From Selenomonadaceae bacterium (GTDB lineage: Bacteria; Bacillota; Negativicutes; Selenomonadales; Selenomonadaceae), in NCBI GenBank assembly GCA_017635875.1, contig JAGBKP010000153.1, positions 1 to 35,520 of the forward strand: DNA of 35,520 bases, in the 5' to 3' direction. A model generated the notes under the pieces. The model was not told where the DNA came from. It saw only the letters and a list, made by a program, of their open reading frames with translations, and made no database searches. Of this stretch, positions 29,463 through 33,506 are shown piece after piece. The first letter of the stretch is position 1. Every line of letters starts with the position of its first letter. The position numbers and the translations under genes are program-made.

Positions 29463-29553
29463 TAATATTAAAGTTTTTTCTTTCTCTTTTTTCTTTGTTA
29501 CTTTCTTTTTTCTCTTTCTTTTTTTCAAAAAAGAAAGAGAAAAAAGAAAGTAA
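29463..29553 (-). repeat. Hairpin plus mirror-repeat (triplex-type) element, copy 6
   Basis: Minus-strand orientation, between thyX and rlmB. Mirror arms 29474-29496 and 29502-29524 are exact over 23 nt around GTTAC, with a perfect 27-bp hairpin 29498-29524 / 29527-29553. It ends with the TTTAATATT tail (ACTTTAATA on its own strand). The core is identical to copy 5, 11.7 kb away. Confidence 0.9.
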
Positions 29554-29557
29554 GGTT

Positions 29558-30232
29558 TTAAAACTTATTTTTTACTTTCCCGCAACTAAACTCGCCTTCG
29601 GGGCAGTAGCCGAACGCGTCGCAGCTTGCGCCCGCTTTTGAAAAGAGGACGGGGGCTACTTTTTTTACTTCTTCAAGCATTTTGTTGGCAAGAGCGCGAA
29701 TTTCCCATTGAGCGCGGTTGCAACAGCGAAGATTAAAAAAGTGCATCAGCGAGCGGGCGTTCATCGTAATTAAAATCTTCGTCTCCGCCGCGTTCGGCAA
29801 AACGTATCTTGCGTCCTCTTTCGGAACGCCAAGCTCCACAAGCTCGTTGTATTTTTTTTGGATTTCTTCCATAATACCGTCGAATTTTTCTTTCGCCGCC
29901 TCGTTCTTTTCAATGGTATGCGGCGTGATATATTCAAAATTATGCTCCGCCACATATCTTTGACTTTGCTGGTCATAAGAAGCTATCCTATGCCGCACAA
30001 GCTGATGCGTCAGCGCGCGGCTTACTCCTTCCACGCCAAACGTAAACGACGCGTGTTCTATGGTAGATCCATGCCCCGTTGCGAGCATCTTTTTTACCAT
30101 TTTCTCTACCGTTTCATTCGGCAGCTTTTCCGAGAGCTCCTCCGCCCCTATAGGCGAATAGCACAGCCGCGCCGCCATAGCGACGACACGTTCGGGATTT
30201 TTCGTGTATTCTAACAGTTTTACTTTTAGCAT
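29558..30232 (-). CDS. thyX: FAD-dependent thymidylate synthase ThyX
   Basis: 224 residues from ATG 30232 (TGGAGAAA site; the longer frame is GGGGC repeat DNA). The ThyX motif RHRxxSxxxxSxR is present as [13 protein letters not shown] at residues 80-92. [20 protein letters not shown] and the C-terminal [16 protein letters not shown] are also typical. It makes dTMP from dUMP using methylene-THF, NADPH and flavin. It is first in the thyX-rlmB-recA-recX series. Confidence 0.96.
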
Positions 30233-30244
30233 TTTTTCTCCATA

Positions 30245-30325
30245 ACACAGGGCTCCGCCCTGTACCCGCAAGGGGCTTTGCCCCTTGACCCCAGCAGGGA
30301 GCATTGCCCCCTGCACCCCATTTTT
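30245..30325. repeat. GGGGCTCCGCCCC hairpin repeat 2
   Basis: ACACAGGGCTCCGCCCTGT, then GCAAGGGGCTTTGCCCCTTGACCCC and GCAGGGAGCATTGCCCCCTGC, ending in a T run; three stacked hairpins. It is related to 25101-25161 and sits directly in front of the thyX ribosome binding site. Confidence 0.7.
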
Positions 30326-30505
30326 ATATTTGTTTATTTAGAATTTCGATAAACGGTTTAAAATTCCTTCAATATCCTCCAAAAGTCCTATGATTTTTTT
30401 GCATAACAGTAAATTATTTTTAAAATCTAAACTCAAAAAAGCCTTGTATTTAAAAGATTTATAGCTAGTATAAATAAAACCTATAGGTCTATCAATTTCT
30501 TGTAT
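30326..30505. other. AT-rich intergenic region, nothing recognised
   Basis: Between the thyX leader repeat and the tiny-peptide promoter. A minus-strand open frame (about 30340-30525, ending LLEDIEGILNRLSKF) has no ATG/GTG start with a ribosome site; it could be a degraded gene end but is not supported. Confidence 0.4.
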
Positions 30506-30579
30506 TTTACACTTTTCTTAAAAGGGTCTATAATGCAAACTGTCGAAAGGAGATAAACAAAAAACAAAAACTTCGACAG
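30506..30579 (+). promoter_or_regulatory. Promoter and 5' stem-loop of the tiny-peptide cluster
   Basis: TTTACA 30506-30511, 17-bp spacer, TATAAT 30529-30534. The expected transcript start (about 30540) coincides with an inverted repeat, CTGTCGAA 30540-30547 and TTCGACAG 30572-30579. Its loop holds AAGGAGAT, a ribosome-site-like sequence with no start codon after it. This resembles 5' stabilising stem-loops of long-lived mRNAs; that role is inference. Confidence 0.7.
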
Positions 30580-30637
30580 GAAAACAAAATTTGCTTTTAA
30601 CTTTTTTAAAAGGTTAACATATATAGGAGTGATAATT

Positions 30638-30724
30638 ATGATTACGATTTTAACGGATGTTATGGAAAATTTCATCGAGCTTATGGAAAAAGCCGCTGTT
30701 GAATTTGAAATTTTCAACAAATAA
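30638..30724 (+). CDS. Tiny acidic amphipathic peptide 1 (28 residues)
   Basis: AGGAGTGATAATT-ATG, then 28 codons. The core is LTDVMENFIELMEKAA, ending EFEIFNK. It is paralogous to peptide 2 (19 of 28 residues identical). Hydrophobic residues recur every 3-4 positions, as in an amphipathic helix. There is no signal peptide or processing motif. I do not recognise the family; cytoplasmic small protein, secreted peptide and leader peptide are all possible. Confidence 0.65.
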   Translation: MITILTDVMENFIELMEKAAVEFEIFNK

Positions 30725-30741
30725 TTTTAGTTAAAATTTAT

Positions 30742-30836
30742 TTACTTTCTTCTTTTCTCTCTTTCTTTTGAAAAAGAAAGCAGAGAAAAGAAGAAAGTAA
30801 CAAAGAAGAAAAGAGAGAAAGAAAACTTTATTATAA
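30742..30836 (+). repeat. Hairpin plus mirror-repeat (triplex-type) element, copy 7
   Basis: Pyrimidine arm 30742-30769, 2-nt loop, purine arm 30772-30800 with one inserted C (30781), centre GTAAC, mirror arm 30802-30825, tail ACTTTATTATAAAA. Apart from the inserted C and the loop, its arms equal copy 2. It is placed between tiny ORFs 1 and 2. Confidence 0.9.
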
Positions 30837-30869
30837 AAAAAGTTTTTTAAGTATTTAGGAGTGATAAAT

Positions 30870-30956
30870 ATGCTTAATGTATTAAACGATGTAATGGAAA
30901 ATTTCGTTGAACTTTTAGAAAATGCAGCTCACGAATTTGAATTTTTCAATAAATAA
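30870..30956 (+). CDS. Tiny acidic amphipathic peptide 2 (28 residues)
   Basis: AGGAGTGATAAAT-ATG. The core is LNDVMENFVELLENAA, ending EFEFFNK. It has the same length, start context and 19 of 28 residues as peptide 1, so the pair arose by duplication and is conserved at the protein level. Conservative changes (I/V, M/L, I/F) support real translation. Confidence 0.65.
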   Translation: MLNVLNDVMENFVELLENAAHEFEFFNK

Positions 30957-30991
30957 TTTCAACCGATTTTAAAATTTTAGGAGTGATAGTT

Positions 30992-31072
30992 ATGTTTACC
31001 ATAATAGCGGAAGTTGCAATAGTCGGCGCTTGGAAAGGTATGCTTACCCTTTTAAACAAAAGCGCAAAATAA
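30992..31072 (+). CDS. Tiny cationic hydrophobic peptide 3 (26 residues)
   Basis: AGGAGTGATAGTT-ATG, the same start context as peptides 1 and 2. FTIIAEVAIVGAWKGMLTLL followed by a Lys-containing end; net charge about +2. It resembles short membrane-active peptides in composition only. It is the last ORF before a strong terminator. Confidence 0.6.
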   Translation: MFTIIAEVAIVGAWKGMLTLLNKSAK

Positions 31073-31084
31073 GATTTAAATAAT

Positions 31085-31128
31085 AAAAATAGCCTCCTAC
31101 GGTGTTTGAACCGTAGGAGGCTATTTTT
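31085..31128. terminator. Terminator of the tiny-peptide cluster
   Basis: AAAAATAGCCTCCTACGG (31085-31102), 8-nt loop, CCGTAGGAGGCTATTTTT (31111-31128). A perfect 18-bp stem with T and A runs, able to act in both directions. Confidence 0.93.
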
Positions 31129-31139
31129 ATGAAAAAAAC

Positions 31140-31168
31140 TTGAGAATTTTGGTGGCGTATGATAAAAT
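31140..31168 (+). promoter_or_regulatory. Promoter of the type I toxin mRNA
   Basis: TTGAGA 31140-31145, 17-bp spacer, TAAAAT 31163-31168 preceded by TGA. It predicts a start near 31175. Confidence 0.7.
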
Positions 31169-31186
31169 ATCCACACTGCCGAAGAT

Positions 31187-31210
31187 ACCTCCATAGAAAC
31201 GAAGGGAGGT
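31187..31210 (+). promoter_or_regulatory. Stem sequestering the toxin ribosome binding site
   Basis: ACCTCC (31187-31192) can pair with GGAGGT (31205-31210), which is the Shine-Dalgarno of the toxin. A 5' stem that limits toxin translation is a known feature of Fst/par-type toxin mRNAs. Confidence 0.65.
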
Positions 31211-31217
31211 GAGCATT

Positions 31218-31316
31218 TTGACAGAATTTGCAACCACTTTGGCTATTAGTATTATTGGTGGCTTAATTGCTAACATAATCTATGACGCCATAAAAATTCG
31301 CTTCGGCAAAAGGTAA
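31218..31316 (+). CDS. Small hydrophobic toxin of a type I (Fst/par-like) TA system
   Basis: 32 residues from TTG 31218, 7 nt after GGAGGT. There is a polar start (MTEFATT), one membrane helix (LAISIIGGLIANIIY) and a basic end (KIRFGKR), the usual plan of Fst/Ldr-type membrane toxins. The assignment rests mainly on layout: a convergent antisense RNA repeats the start region and an internal 13-nt stretch of this mRNA. The toxin sequence itself is not one I can match. Confidence 0.7.
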   Translation: MTEFATTLAISIIGGLIANIIYDAIKIRFGKR

Positions 31317-31353
31317 TATCAAAGCCTTGGCAGCACAACCAAAATTTTGATGC

Positions 31354-31377
31354 GCCCCCTTATGGGGGCTTTTTTTT
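31354..31377 (+). terminator. Terminator of the toxin mRNA
   Basis: GCCCCC-TTAT-GGGGGC followed by eight T residues. Confidence 0.93.
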
Positions 31378-31378
31378 C

Positions 31379-31485
31379 AAAAAAACAAATACCCCACGGG
31401 GCACAACTCCCGCGAGGTATTTGCCGGTGAGAATTTGACTGATGTCGCTCGAAAGCGACTTGCAACCACTTTCTATCAATTCACG
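31379..31485 (-). ncRNA. Antitoxin RNA (RNA II-like) of the type I TA locus
   Basis: About 107 nt, convergent with the toxin mRNA. It ends at CAAATACC...GGTATTTG (31386-31423) with a T run (revcomp of 31379-31385). It contains GUCGCU-UUCG-AGCGAC (31444-31459). The plus strand here repeats two toxin mRNA segments: TTGCAACCACTTT (31460-31472, same as 31228-31240) and GGTGAGAATTTGACTGA (31426-31442, versus GGTGAGCATTTTGACAGA at 31209-31226). The RNA would therefore pair with the toxin start site and with an internal site. Confidence 0.75.
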
Positions 31486-31490
31486 GATTC

Positions 31491-31519
31491 ATTGTAGCAT
31501 AATCTCAAAATCTTTGCAA
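31491..31519 (-). promoter_or_regulatory. Promoter of the antitoxin RNA
   Basis: Minus strand: TTGCAA (31519-31514), 17-bp spacer, TACAAT (31496-31491). It is close to consensus and stronger than the toxin promoter, as expected for an unstable antisense RNA. Confidence 0.75.
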
Positions 31520-31573
31520 GGAAAATTTTTTTTCTTCTTGTTAGGTGTTCAAGAAGAACATAGCACATTCGTA

Positions 31574-31903
31574 TCAAGCGTAACCCTTTTCTTTTTTCCA
31601 CTCCTTATAAAACGCCGGACGAAATTCATTAAAGAAGTAATCATTAAACTCTTCCTCCGTTTTAAAACCTGCTTTTTCTGCCGCGCCTTCGCAAGCCTTG
31701 GCAACTTTTCTTAACGCAACCATCATAGGAGAACTACCTCTATAATATTCGTCTATATCGTCTTTTGTAGTTTTTAGCGAAACGTCCTTCTTTACTTTAT
31801 CCCTCAAAAACCGATCCACCGCATCTTTTAAACTTAAACCTTCTTTTGCAAACGCTTTCGCCGCTTTTTCGCTTAATTCGTTATCTATCGTTAAACTTGC
31901 CAT
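31574..31903 (-). CDS. RelB/DinJ-like antitoxin, paralogue 2
   Basis: 109 residues from ATG 31903 (AAGGAG 8 nt upstream; an in-frame GTG at 31912 abuts that site). The N-terminus ASLTIDNELSEKAAKAFAKEGLSLKDAVDRFLRDKV is RelB/DinJ ribbon-helix-helix-like. The C-terminal half (FKTEEEFNDYFFNEFRPAFYKEWKKE) is unfamiliar. It shares its first 14 residues and the DNA around the start with the antitoxin at 32319-32594, so it is a duplicated N-terminal module with a different toxin-binding part. It is last in the operon, 12 nt after the PIN gene. Confidence 0.75.
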   Translation of the reverse strand: MASLTIDNELSEKAAKAFAKEGLSLKDAVDRFLRDKVKKDVSLKTTKDDIDEYYRGSSPMMVALRKVAKACEGAAEKAGFKTEEEFNDYFFNEFRPAFYKEWKKEKGYA

Positions 31904-31915
31904 AACTATCACTCC

Positions 31916-32332
31916 TTACGAAAACTTTTCTATAAACTCTTGCATCGTAAATATTTTCGGCTTTTTTACAATATCTTTCAAAACCAAAAAATCCTTATCG
32001 CCCGTTATAAGATAATCCACATCGCTTTTTATCGCCGCCGCAAGGATTGGTCTATCTTTTTCGTCGCGTATGTTTGGGACATCAGTGTAATCTTCGGCGG
32101 AAGGTATAAGAGTATATTTTAAATCATCTAAAAAAGGTTGAACTAAAAATAGTTTATTACTGTTTTTTCTATTCGTCACATCAAAAAATTCTTCAATTAC
32201 ATCTTTAGTAATCACTATTTCAAAATTATTTTTATGTAACATTTCAAAAAGTCTAACAGTAGTTTCCGAAGAGTAAAAACAAGAGGAAAAGAGTATATTC
32301 GTATCAATCATAACCCATTTATTTTTTTGCAT
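31916..32332 (-). CDS. PIN-domain toxin (putative endoribonuclease)
   Basis: 138 residues from ATG 32332, which overlaps the end of the upstream antitoxin by 14 nt. Acidic PIN residues are visible: MIDTNIL, the Glu pair in VIEEFFD, and DEKDRPILAAAIKSDVDYLITGDKDF, the last typical of the COG1569 'putative toxin component, PIN family'. It would cleave RNA when free of antitoxin. The longer frame to 32380 lies inside the upstream gene and is less likely. Confidence 0.85.
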   Translation of the reverse strand: MQKNKWVMIDTNILFSSCFYSSETTVRLFEMLHKNNFEIVITKDVIEEFFDVTNRKNSNKLFLVQPFLDDLKYTLIPSAEDYTDVPNIRDEKDRPILAAAIKSDVDYLITGDKDFLVLKDIVKKPKIFTMQEFIEKFS

Positions 32333-32594
32333 ACCTTTCTTTGCGAATTTCTTTAATATATCCAACAAGTTCATCATCATCTTTATACCACGGCTCCTCG
32401 TTATTTTTTTTCATTTCCTCCATTCGAGTTTTGAAATGATTCATAAGTCTGTTATGTCTAGCCTCATCTTTTTGGTTTTCTTTTACGAGTTCCTTAAGAA
32501 ACCAATCAATACAATCTTTTAAATTATATCCCATTTTTTTTAAAACATTTTCCGCCTTTTCGCTTAATTCGTTATCTATCGTTAAACTTGCCAT
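32319..32594 (-). CDS. RelB/DinJ-like antitoxin, paralogue 1
   Basis: 91 residues from ATG 32594 (AAAGGAGTTGATAGTT upstream; an in-frame TTG at 32603 is inside the site). The N-terminal ASLTIDNELSEKAENVLKKMGYNLKDCIDWFLKELV is ribbon-helix-helix-like, and the C-terminus is charged (MEEMKKNNEEPWYKDDDE). Immediately upstream of and overlapping the PIN toxin, so it is probably its antitoxin. Confidence 0.8.
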   Translation of the reverse strand: MASLTIDNELSEKAENVLKKMGYNLKDCIDWFLKELVKENQKDEARHNRLMNHFKTRMEEMKKNNEEPWYKDDDELVGYIKEIRKERYAKK

Positions 32595-32612
32595 AACTAT
32601 CAACTCCTTTTT

Positions 32613-32795
32613 TCACACAGCAATTTTACGCCTTTTCGATACTCTCTGAAACAATTTTCCTTCTGCTTCCGTCGTCGGAGGACAATCCTCGTCAAAAACT
32701 ATATCTTCATCTTTCATATTTTTTAAATCCAATAATTCAGCTTCTTGTTCTAGAGTTAGCGGCGCGTTTAAATCAATCCATTTCTTGACTATCAT
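32613..32795 (-). CDS. Putative antitoxin partner of BrnT (non-BrnA type)
   Basis: 60 residues from ATG 32795 (AAGGAG 8 nt upstream; the ATG at 32813 precedes this site). It overlaps brnT by 23 nt. IVKKWIDLNAPLTLEQEAELLDLKNMKDEDIVFDEDCPP is acidic and lacks the C-terminal ribbon-helix-helix of BrnA. I assign it as antitoxin from position only. Confidence 0.65.
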   Translation of the reverse strand: MIVKKWIDLNAPLTLEQEAELLDLKNMKDEDIVFDEDCPPTTEAEGKLFQRVSKRRKIAV

Positions 32796-33069
32796 AGTAT
32801 AAACTCCTTTCATATAATGTGGCTTTTCGAGCAGAAATCAATCGCGTGCCTATTCGCTCCGTATAAACCACAAATAAAATATCCTTTACCCTACCTATAG
32901 TTTTCCATCTATCTTCACTTGAAGAATGACTGTCGTCATATTCTTCAATACGATTTTCATCTCTAAAAACCATAGCAGCCGTCTCAAAACTTATACCATG
33001 TTTCATCTTGTTGATTTTGGCTTTTTCGTCATCCCACTCAAAAAGTTTATTGTTTATTATTTTTCGCAT
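32773..33069 (-). CDS. brnT: BrnT-family toxin (RelE-like ribonuclease fold)
   Basis: 98 residues. FEWDDEKAKINKMKHGISFETAAMVF, then EDRWKTIGRVKDILFVVYTERIGTRLISARKAT and YERSLYYD, match the BrnT/DUF497 pattern (FEWDxxKAxxNxxKHGVSFEEA ... RxISARKAxxxER). It is a ribosome-independent RNase in the described family. First gene of the five-gene toxin-antitoxin operon. Confidence 0.92.
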   Translation of the reverse strand: MRKIINNKLFEWDDEKAKINKMKHGISFETAAMVFRDENRIEEYDDSHSSSEDRWKTIGRVKDILFVVYTERIGTRLISARKATLYERSLYYDSQEMD

Positions 33070-33093
33070 ATTCTCTCAGTATCAACTCCTTTT

Positions 33094-33127
33094 CCTATAT
33101 TTTATCAAACACCCCTATATTTTACAA
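33094..33127 (-). promoter_or_regulatory. TA operon promoter with direct-repeat operator
   Basis: Minus strand: TTGTAA (33127-33122), 17-bp spacer, TAAAAT (33104-33099). CCTATATTTT occurs at 33094-33103 and again at 33114-33123, exactly 20 bp (two helical turns) apart, covering the -10 and -35. That is suited to cooperative binding by an autoregulating antitoxin. Confidence 0.65.
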
Positions 33128-33450
33128 TAGAGCAATTTACAATTTTGTTGTCACTTGAAGAATGTTTGCAAATGTTTTTAGTTTAGAGGTGTTCATTTTC
33201 TTTGCTCGTGCAAAGAAAACGAACCAAAAGAAACACGCAAGGGGTTTTCACCCCTTGACCCCACAAATTTTAGGTTGTGCTTTTTTATTTACCGTTTGCT
33301 TATAATAAAGGTTTTGGCTGTGGTTGCCTATGCGCCTCAACATGGGCTTCGCCCAACTTTTCCCGTTTACTTTGGTGGCGTTGCAAACCTAAATAATAAT
33401 TCCCCATTTTCATATCTTTCATAAAAAAGCACAATCGCGCCGCATTACCG
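33122..33450 (+). repeat. Long dispersed repeat, copy D (long subtype)
   Basis: Plus-strand relative of copy B at 5755-6128. The head is TAGAGCAATTTACAATTTTG. A 15-bp hairpin (33191-33205 / 33210-33224) has a TCGT loop, with perfect mirror arms CAAAGAAAAC 33211-33220 and CAAAAGAAAC 33225-33234 around GAAC. The AGGGGTTTTCACCCCT hairpin, GGGCTTCGCCC and the CGCCGCATTACC tail follow. Its head overlaps the -35 of the TA operon promoter. Confidence 0.75.
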
Positions 33451-33466
33451 TCCCTTTATAGAAACA

Positions 33467-33499
33467 ACAAAAAAAAGACCCCCGTAGGGGGTCTTTTTT
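33467..33499. terminator. Flagellin terminator
   Basis: A-run 33467-33476, GACCCCC-GTAG-GGGGTC (33477-33493), T-run to 33499. It directly follows the flagellin stop on the minus strand. Confidence 0.93.
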
Positions 33500-33506
33500 A
33501 AAACTC

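What the first reader, a model, noticed from the sequence alone, without database searches (positions are those of the whole stretch)
30506..31128. Cluster of tiny peptides: two paralogous 28-mers and one 26-mer
Three ORFs too short for routine annotation share the start context AGGAGTGATAnnTATG, a consensus promoter, a 5' stem-loop and a perfect 18-bp terminator. Peptides 1 and 2 are 19/28 identical with conservative replacements. They are acidic amphipathic helices; peptide 3 is hydrophobic and cationic. This could be a multi-peptide membrane-active or signalling system, or small protein partners; none is a family I know.
Basis: partly seen in the sequence, partly recalled or inferred. Interest (0 to 1): 0.68.

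Follow-up and report, generated by a model that had tools for sequence, protein, structure and literature searches.

The report
Operon of tiny amphipathic helical peptides
A rumen bacterium carries, in several copies, a small operon that makes only three or four very short helical peptides with no known relatives; the sequence shows they are real and conserved genes, and the best guess is that they act on membranes, but this has not been shown.

Summary
The three ORFs (28, 28, 26 aa), each with its own AGGAGTGATA Shine-Dalgarno, lie between an 11/12 promoter with a 5'-terminal hairpin and a 21-nt-arm terminator. They are genuine genes: the acidic 28-mers recur 14 times in seven operons of three genomes of one rumen Selenomonadaceae genus, the frame is open in all copies tested, and pooled pN/pS is 0.18 in that frame against 1.3-1.9 in four of the five others (the fifth is interrupted by stops). 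Promoter core and leader are shared by exactly these seven operons. Other operons add a cationic 27-mer and a 47-mer. The operons sit at unrelated chromosomal sites with no consistent exporter, immunity or modification gene. The window copy lies in a 3.3-kb block over 99.5% identical to another species' copy while flanks differ by 4-15%, suggesting recent exchange. No match in Pfam, NCBIfam, phages, plasmids, viral contigs or the other genera searched. Best explanation (0.4): a leaderless set of membrane-active amphipathic peptides working like, but not shown to belong to, phenol-soluble modulins. Intracellular membrane proteins, leaderless bacteriocin, type I toxin and RiPP precursor remain open. 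Expression, export and function are untested.

The parts
30499..30534 (+). Shared promoter: CTTGTATTTTACA (contains -35 TTTACA) to -10 TATAAT
   Evidence: 11/12 sigma-70 match; pattern with up to 3 mismatches occurs only at the seven peptide operons in five genomes searched, control 0; 13-nt core invariant in the alignment
30536..30582 (+). 5'-terminal leader hairpin (invariant 5' arm CAAACTGTCGAAAGG)
   Evidence: Folds in all loci, z -2.7 to -4.9; exact AAACTGTCGAAAGG only at these operons
30638..30724 (+). Peptide 1, acidic 28-mer MITILTDVMENFIELMEKAAVEFEIFNK
   Evidence: SD AGGAG; homologues under purifying selection
30742..30800 (.). Pyrimidine/purine palindrome between genes 1 and 2; similar element at 29498-29553
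   Evidence: Arms 28 nt, 86% complementary; nothing like it between genes of the C175 operon
30870..30956 (+). Peptide 2, acidic 28-mer MLNVLNDVMENFVELLENAAHEFEFFNK
   Evidence: SD AGGAG; 89-96% identical paralogues on contig C175 with dS 0.8-1.1 and omega 0.06-0.08
30992..31072 (+). Peptide 3, hydrophobic 26-mer, net +2, MFTIIAEVAIVGAWKGMLTLLNKSAK
   Evidence: SD AGGAG; paralogue on C175 58% identical, omega 0.30
31083..31130 (+). Terminator-like inverted repeat, 21-nt perfect arms
   Evidence: flagged as a terminator on the - strand
30231..33506 (.). Block nearly identical between G000 and G001 (operon, small hydrophobic-peptide gene, RelB-like/PIN pair and neighbours)
   Evidence: 13 mismatches in 3273 aligned bases (0.4%), against 4.0% (thyX), 8.6% (rlmB) and 14.6% (flagellin) outside

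Best explanation
A stand-alone operon makes a set of leaderless small amphipathic peptides that act on membranes. Shown from sequence: a near-consensus shared promoter, a 5'-terminal hairpin, a separate strong ribosome site for each peptide, a terminator, and selection on the amino-acid sequence. Inferred: the hairpin protects the mRNA 5' end so that the peptides are made in quantity; the conserved first 20 residues form an amphipathic helix that lies on lipid bilayers; each operon combines acidic helices with one cationic or hydrophobic peptide, so the products probably act together; they leave the cell through an unlinked general exporter or by lysis and act as a surfactant or membrane-disturbing agent, in the manner of staphylococcal phenol-soluble modulins.
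For: Seven operons share promoter and leader and encode only small peptides. Helical moment 0.46-0.58 in the acidic 28-mers and the cationic 27-mer, shuffle p below 0.015. D7, E10, N11 and E14 are invariant: the i, i+3, i+4, i+7 spacing of a polar helix face. pN/pS 0.18 in the coding frame. No signal sequence is evident in peptides this short; no constant neighbour genes. Sets of short (26-28 aa) and longer (47 aa) peptides parallel the 20-25 aa and 43-45 aa classes described for PSMs (PMC12607899). The window operon lies in a recently exchanged block and operons occupy differing positions, as expected for a trait used between cells.
Against: No evidence of export; no Pmt-like transporter is consistently linked (one ABC-2 type pair near the C175 copy only). 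The cell is expected to be a diderm, so release needs two membranes crossed. Strong acidity (-3 to -6) is not typical of membrane-lytic peptides. An amphipathic helix equally suits a protein that stays inside.
Confidence: 0.4

Rival explanations
1. Intracellular membrane-bound small proteins: the helices dock on the inner face of the cytoplasmic membrane or on a membrane protein and tune it, under one dedicated promoter type.
For: Strong purifying selection, no export or immunity genes, amphipathic acidic helix, strictly shared promoter suggesting one regulator.
Against: Multi-copy, genus-restricted, variable positions and recent exchange are unusual for a housekeeping partner; no companion gene.
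Confidence: 0.25
2. Multi-peptide leaderless bacteriocin acting on competing rumen bacteria.
For: Several SD-equipped leaderless peptides of about 30 aa in one operon; recent exchange between species.
Against: Leaderless bacteriocins listed in PMC6131525 are cationic (rows seen: +3 to +8) while most of these are -3 to -6; no linked transporter or immunity gene; little diversifying change.
Confidence: 0.13
3. Type I toxin-like peptides: overproduction harms the cell's own membrane, and translation is held down by RNA.
For: Strong promoter and structured 5' end, type I-like small genes next to two of the operons; the subtype B 27-mer region has a conserved RNA fold and almost no synonymous change.
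Against: No conserved antisense promoter or RNA over the operon was found; the peptides are mostly acidic and amphipathic, not hydrophobic; the leader hairpin covers no gene's SD.
Confidence: 0.1
4. Precursors of a processed or modified signalling peptide: residues 1-20 are the leader, the variable last 8 residues (EFEFFNK, DAEYANC) the product.
For: First 20 residues conserved, last 8 variable, terminal Cys in most subtype B copies.
Against: No modifying enzyme, protease, receptor or transporter linked; peptide 3 and the 27-mer do not share this layout.
Confidence: 0.08

Closest known systems
Phenol-soluble modulins (Staphylococcus)
   Same: Short leaderless amphipathic helices, a short and a longer class (PMC12607899); several per operon and no linked exporter (general knowledge)
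   Different: No profile match, different cell envelope, the 28-mers are strongly acidic, export unknown; direct sequence comparison with PSMs not made
Multi-peptide leaderless bacteriocins (aureocin A70, garvicin KS, cereucins)
   Same: Three or four peptides of about 30 aa without leader in one operon
   Different: Those are cationic, with transport/immunity genes known for some (PMC6131525); these are mostly acidic and stand alone
Type I toxin-antitoxin peptides (Fst/Ldr type)
   Same: Tiny membrane-directed peptides with structured mRNA, multi-copy
   Different: No antisense RNA found; several different peptides per transcript; not uniformly hydrophobic

Membership tests
Phenol-soluble modulins | Sequence or profile similarity to the family | tested here: not met
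   No Pfam or NCBIfam match up to E = 10 for any of the peptides, except a non-significant phasin hit for the 47-mer. Direct comparison with PSM sequences was not made.
Phenol-soluble modulins | Amphipathic alpha-helical peptides of 20-25 or about 44 aa | tested here: inconclusive
   Amphipathic by helical moment, lengths 26-28 and 47; helix not measured
Phenol-soluble modulins | Secretion by Pmt/AbcA-type exporters | not testable with these tools
   No consistent linked exporter; secretion cannot be assayed here
Leaderless bacteriocins | Cationic peptides | tested here: not met
   28-mers -3 to -6; only the 26-/27-mers are +1 to +2
Leaderless bacteriocins | Linked transport or immunity genes | tested here: not met
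   Flanks of the seven operons hold unrelated genes with nothing in common
Leaderless bacteriocins | Antibacterial activity | not testable with these tools
   Needs synthetic peptides
Type I toxin-antitoxin | Antisense RNA to the toxin mRNA | tested here: inconclusive
   Only a divergent promoter-like site at 30495-30467, not conserved in the aligned loci; no RNA data
Type I toxin-antitoxin | Growth inhibition on overexpression | not testable with these tools
   Bench test

The most novel reading that the evidence does not exclude
A new, genus-specific class of multi-component membrane-active peptides in diderm Firmicutes of the rumen, in which acidic helices are paired with cationic or hydrophobic ones and are secreted together as a surfactant or weapon: a PSM-like system outside monoderm bacteria, spread between species on small islands.
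Probability: 0.2. Interest if true: 0.75.

Novelty: new variant of a known kind. Interest (0 to 1): 0.52.

Why it matters
It adds a well-supported family of tiny proteins of the kind gene finders skip, with a shared promoter and leader that let the copies be found by one DNA pattern. If the peptides are secreted, they would be a new kind of peptide weapon or surfactant in a rumen lineage, directly testable with synthetic peptides.

Tried and rejected
Chance ORFs: rejected by paralogues and selection. Antisense gene: the one antisense frame with a low pN/pS (0.23) carries stops in 8 of 12 copies. Known family: no match. Phage, plasmid or viral origin: none found. Wider spread: weak hits in other genera (E 0.004-0.9) covered only part of the query or lay in other frames; those examined had no operon context. 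The six hits of the GTDB pattern scan outside this genus lie in other, mostly much longer reading frames. Leader peptide of an attenuator: no downstream gene in the operon, terminator follows. Rfam: nothing at gathering score; low-threshold hits are mostly the palindrome and terminator matching hairpin models. One-mismatch leader hits elsewhere lack a peptide operon. Looking for an empty thyX site in G002 failed: no thyX match there. Paper searches for PSM-like or small-protein work in the rumen or Selenomonas gave nothing relevant.

Full report
Observation. The terminator arms are 21 nt, longer than claimed. A 59-nt pyrimidine/purine palindrome separates genes 1 and 2; the C175 operon has nothing like it between its genes.

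Real genes. The same genome has a second operon on contig C175 with three 28-mers and one 26-mer. Two congeneric genomes (G001, G002) carry five more operons. The contigs of G001 and G002 match rumen MAG records named Selenomonadaceae bacterium RGIG9261 (water deer) and RGIG6591 (sheep) by length and match position. For paralogues of peptide 2 on C175, dS is 0.8-1.1 and dN 0.05-0.08. Pooled over 12 distinct 28-mers, pN/pS is 0.18 in the coding frame and 1.3-1.9 in four other frames; one antisense frame gives 0.23, presumably because its silent sites fall on the same bases, and it is interrupted by stops in 8 of 12 copies. Changes by codon position are 52, 34, 157. These pairs are not independent, so the figures are descriptive; a Fisher test on four separate pairs gives p = 2e-13. 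The window and G001 copies of genes 2 and 3 are identical, so they add no test. Not every set shows this: the MITL-type 28-mers give omega 0.4-0.8 with few changes.

Two subtypes. Subtype A (window, C175, G001 C115) has 28-mers ending FNK (one FNN) and a hydrophobic 26-mer. Subtype B (G001 C39 and C28, G002 C222 and C411) starts with a cationic 27-mer (MIEKIIGAVKSYFKLMNKGTAQMTNVD), continues with one or two 28-mers ending mostly in NC, and in two loci a 47-mer. A decayed fragment of the 47-mer lies after a bioD-like gene in G002. The 26-mers share only an N-terminal M-x-T-I-x-x-D/E-V pattern with the 28-mers; common origin is possible, not shown.

Regulation. CTTGTATTTTACA and AAACTGTCGAAAGG are invariant in all seven operons although silent sites between the subtypes are near or at saturation. 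The promoter pattern with up to three mismatches finds these seven sites and nothing else in five genomes, with no control hit. The 5' arm of the hairpin is invariant; the 3' arm differs between subtypes but pairs in both. From general knowledge, a hairpin within a few bases of the 5' end protects mRNA; here that is inference.

RNA-level constraint in subtype B. The 27-mer gene has almost no silent change (dS 0-0.08) between loci whose first 28-mers have dS 0.46 or more, and folds as GCGCAGTG/CACTGCGC plus, in three of four loci, a TTGAC/GTCAA hairpin at the stop codon. This stretch may be an RNA element as well as, or instead of, a peptide gene; four sequences cannot decide, and omega for the 27-mer is not below 1 in a testable way.

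Range. 189 genomes of the family and 380 of the class gave full-length matches to the 28-mers only in the three genomes of this genus; within the family the same holds for the 27-mer, 26-mer and 47-mer. Phage, plasmid and viral collections gave none. No Pfam or NCBIfam family. Metagenome contigs could not be searched.

Surroundings. The operons sit beside unrelated genes: thyX and TA genes, an MBL-fold and CBS gene, an RND pump and pgi, a Crp-like regulator, a PTS gene (names by eye from the sequence). The MBL gene is present without the operon in G001 and G002. The window operon lies in a block of about 3.3 kb that differs from G001 by 0.4%, while thyX, rlmB and flagellin outside differ by 4.0, 8.6 and 14.6%. 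Recent transfer or recombination is the simplest reading; a local selective sweep or assembly effects in these MAGs cannot be excluded.

Mechanism. The acidic 28-mers and the 27-mer are amphipathic by helical moment. Absence of signal sequence, modifying enzyme and immunity gene, with strong expression signals and several peptides per mRNA, resembles phenol-soluble modulins (PMC12607899) in mode more than leaderless bacteriocins, which are cationic (PMC6131525). No PSM sequence was compared directly, so membership is neither claimed nor fully tested. Steps shown: gene reality for the 28-mers, selection, shared control signals, distribution. Steps inferred: high expression, helix, membrane binding, joint action, export.

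Noticed in passing
window 31140-31520: Small ORF (31218-31316, TTG start, MTEFATTLAISIIGGLIANIIYDAIKIRFGKR) with its own promoter-like site, convergent with a - strand promoter-like site at 31519; both regions share TTGCAACCACTTT (about 31227 and 31460). Looks like an Fst/par-type type I toxin-antitoxin locus; no Pfam or NCBIfam match.
   Followed up: partly
window 31574-33069: RelB/DinJ-like ORFs (31574-31912, 32319-32603) around a PIN-domain-like ORF (31916-32380), and a BrnT-like ORF at 32773-33069: a cluster of toxin-antitoxin-like genes inside the exchanged block. Names by eye.
   Followed up: no
window 30231-33506: Block almost identical between two species while both flanks have diverged by 4-15%.
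   Followed up: partly
L019 about 1880-1960, downstream of the C39 operon: A short ORF reading about MTNYEVAMLTLAVLNVLIGVASLLK after a GGGAGGGG-type SD, like small holin-like type I toxins, beside another copy of the peptide operon. Read by eye.
   Followed up: no
window 29498-29553 and 30742-30800: Long pyrimidine/purine palindromes, similar sequence also in G001 (L131 about 2230-2320); probably a repeat family of the genus.
   Followed up: no
L019-L022, 27-mer gene: Near-absence of synonymous change and a conserved RNA fold over the 27-mer gene, suggesting an RNA element overlapping the coding region.
   Followed up: partly
L020 (G001 C28) versus other subtype B loci: The only subtype B 28-mer ending in Ser instead of Cys is in the locus where no second Cys-ending 28-mer was found (the contig ends about 160 bases further on), which would fit a disulphide partner; one case only.
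   Followed up: no
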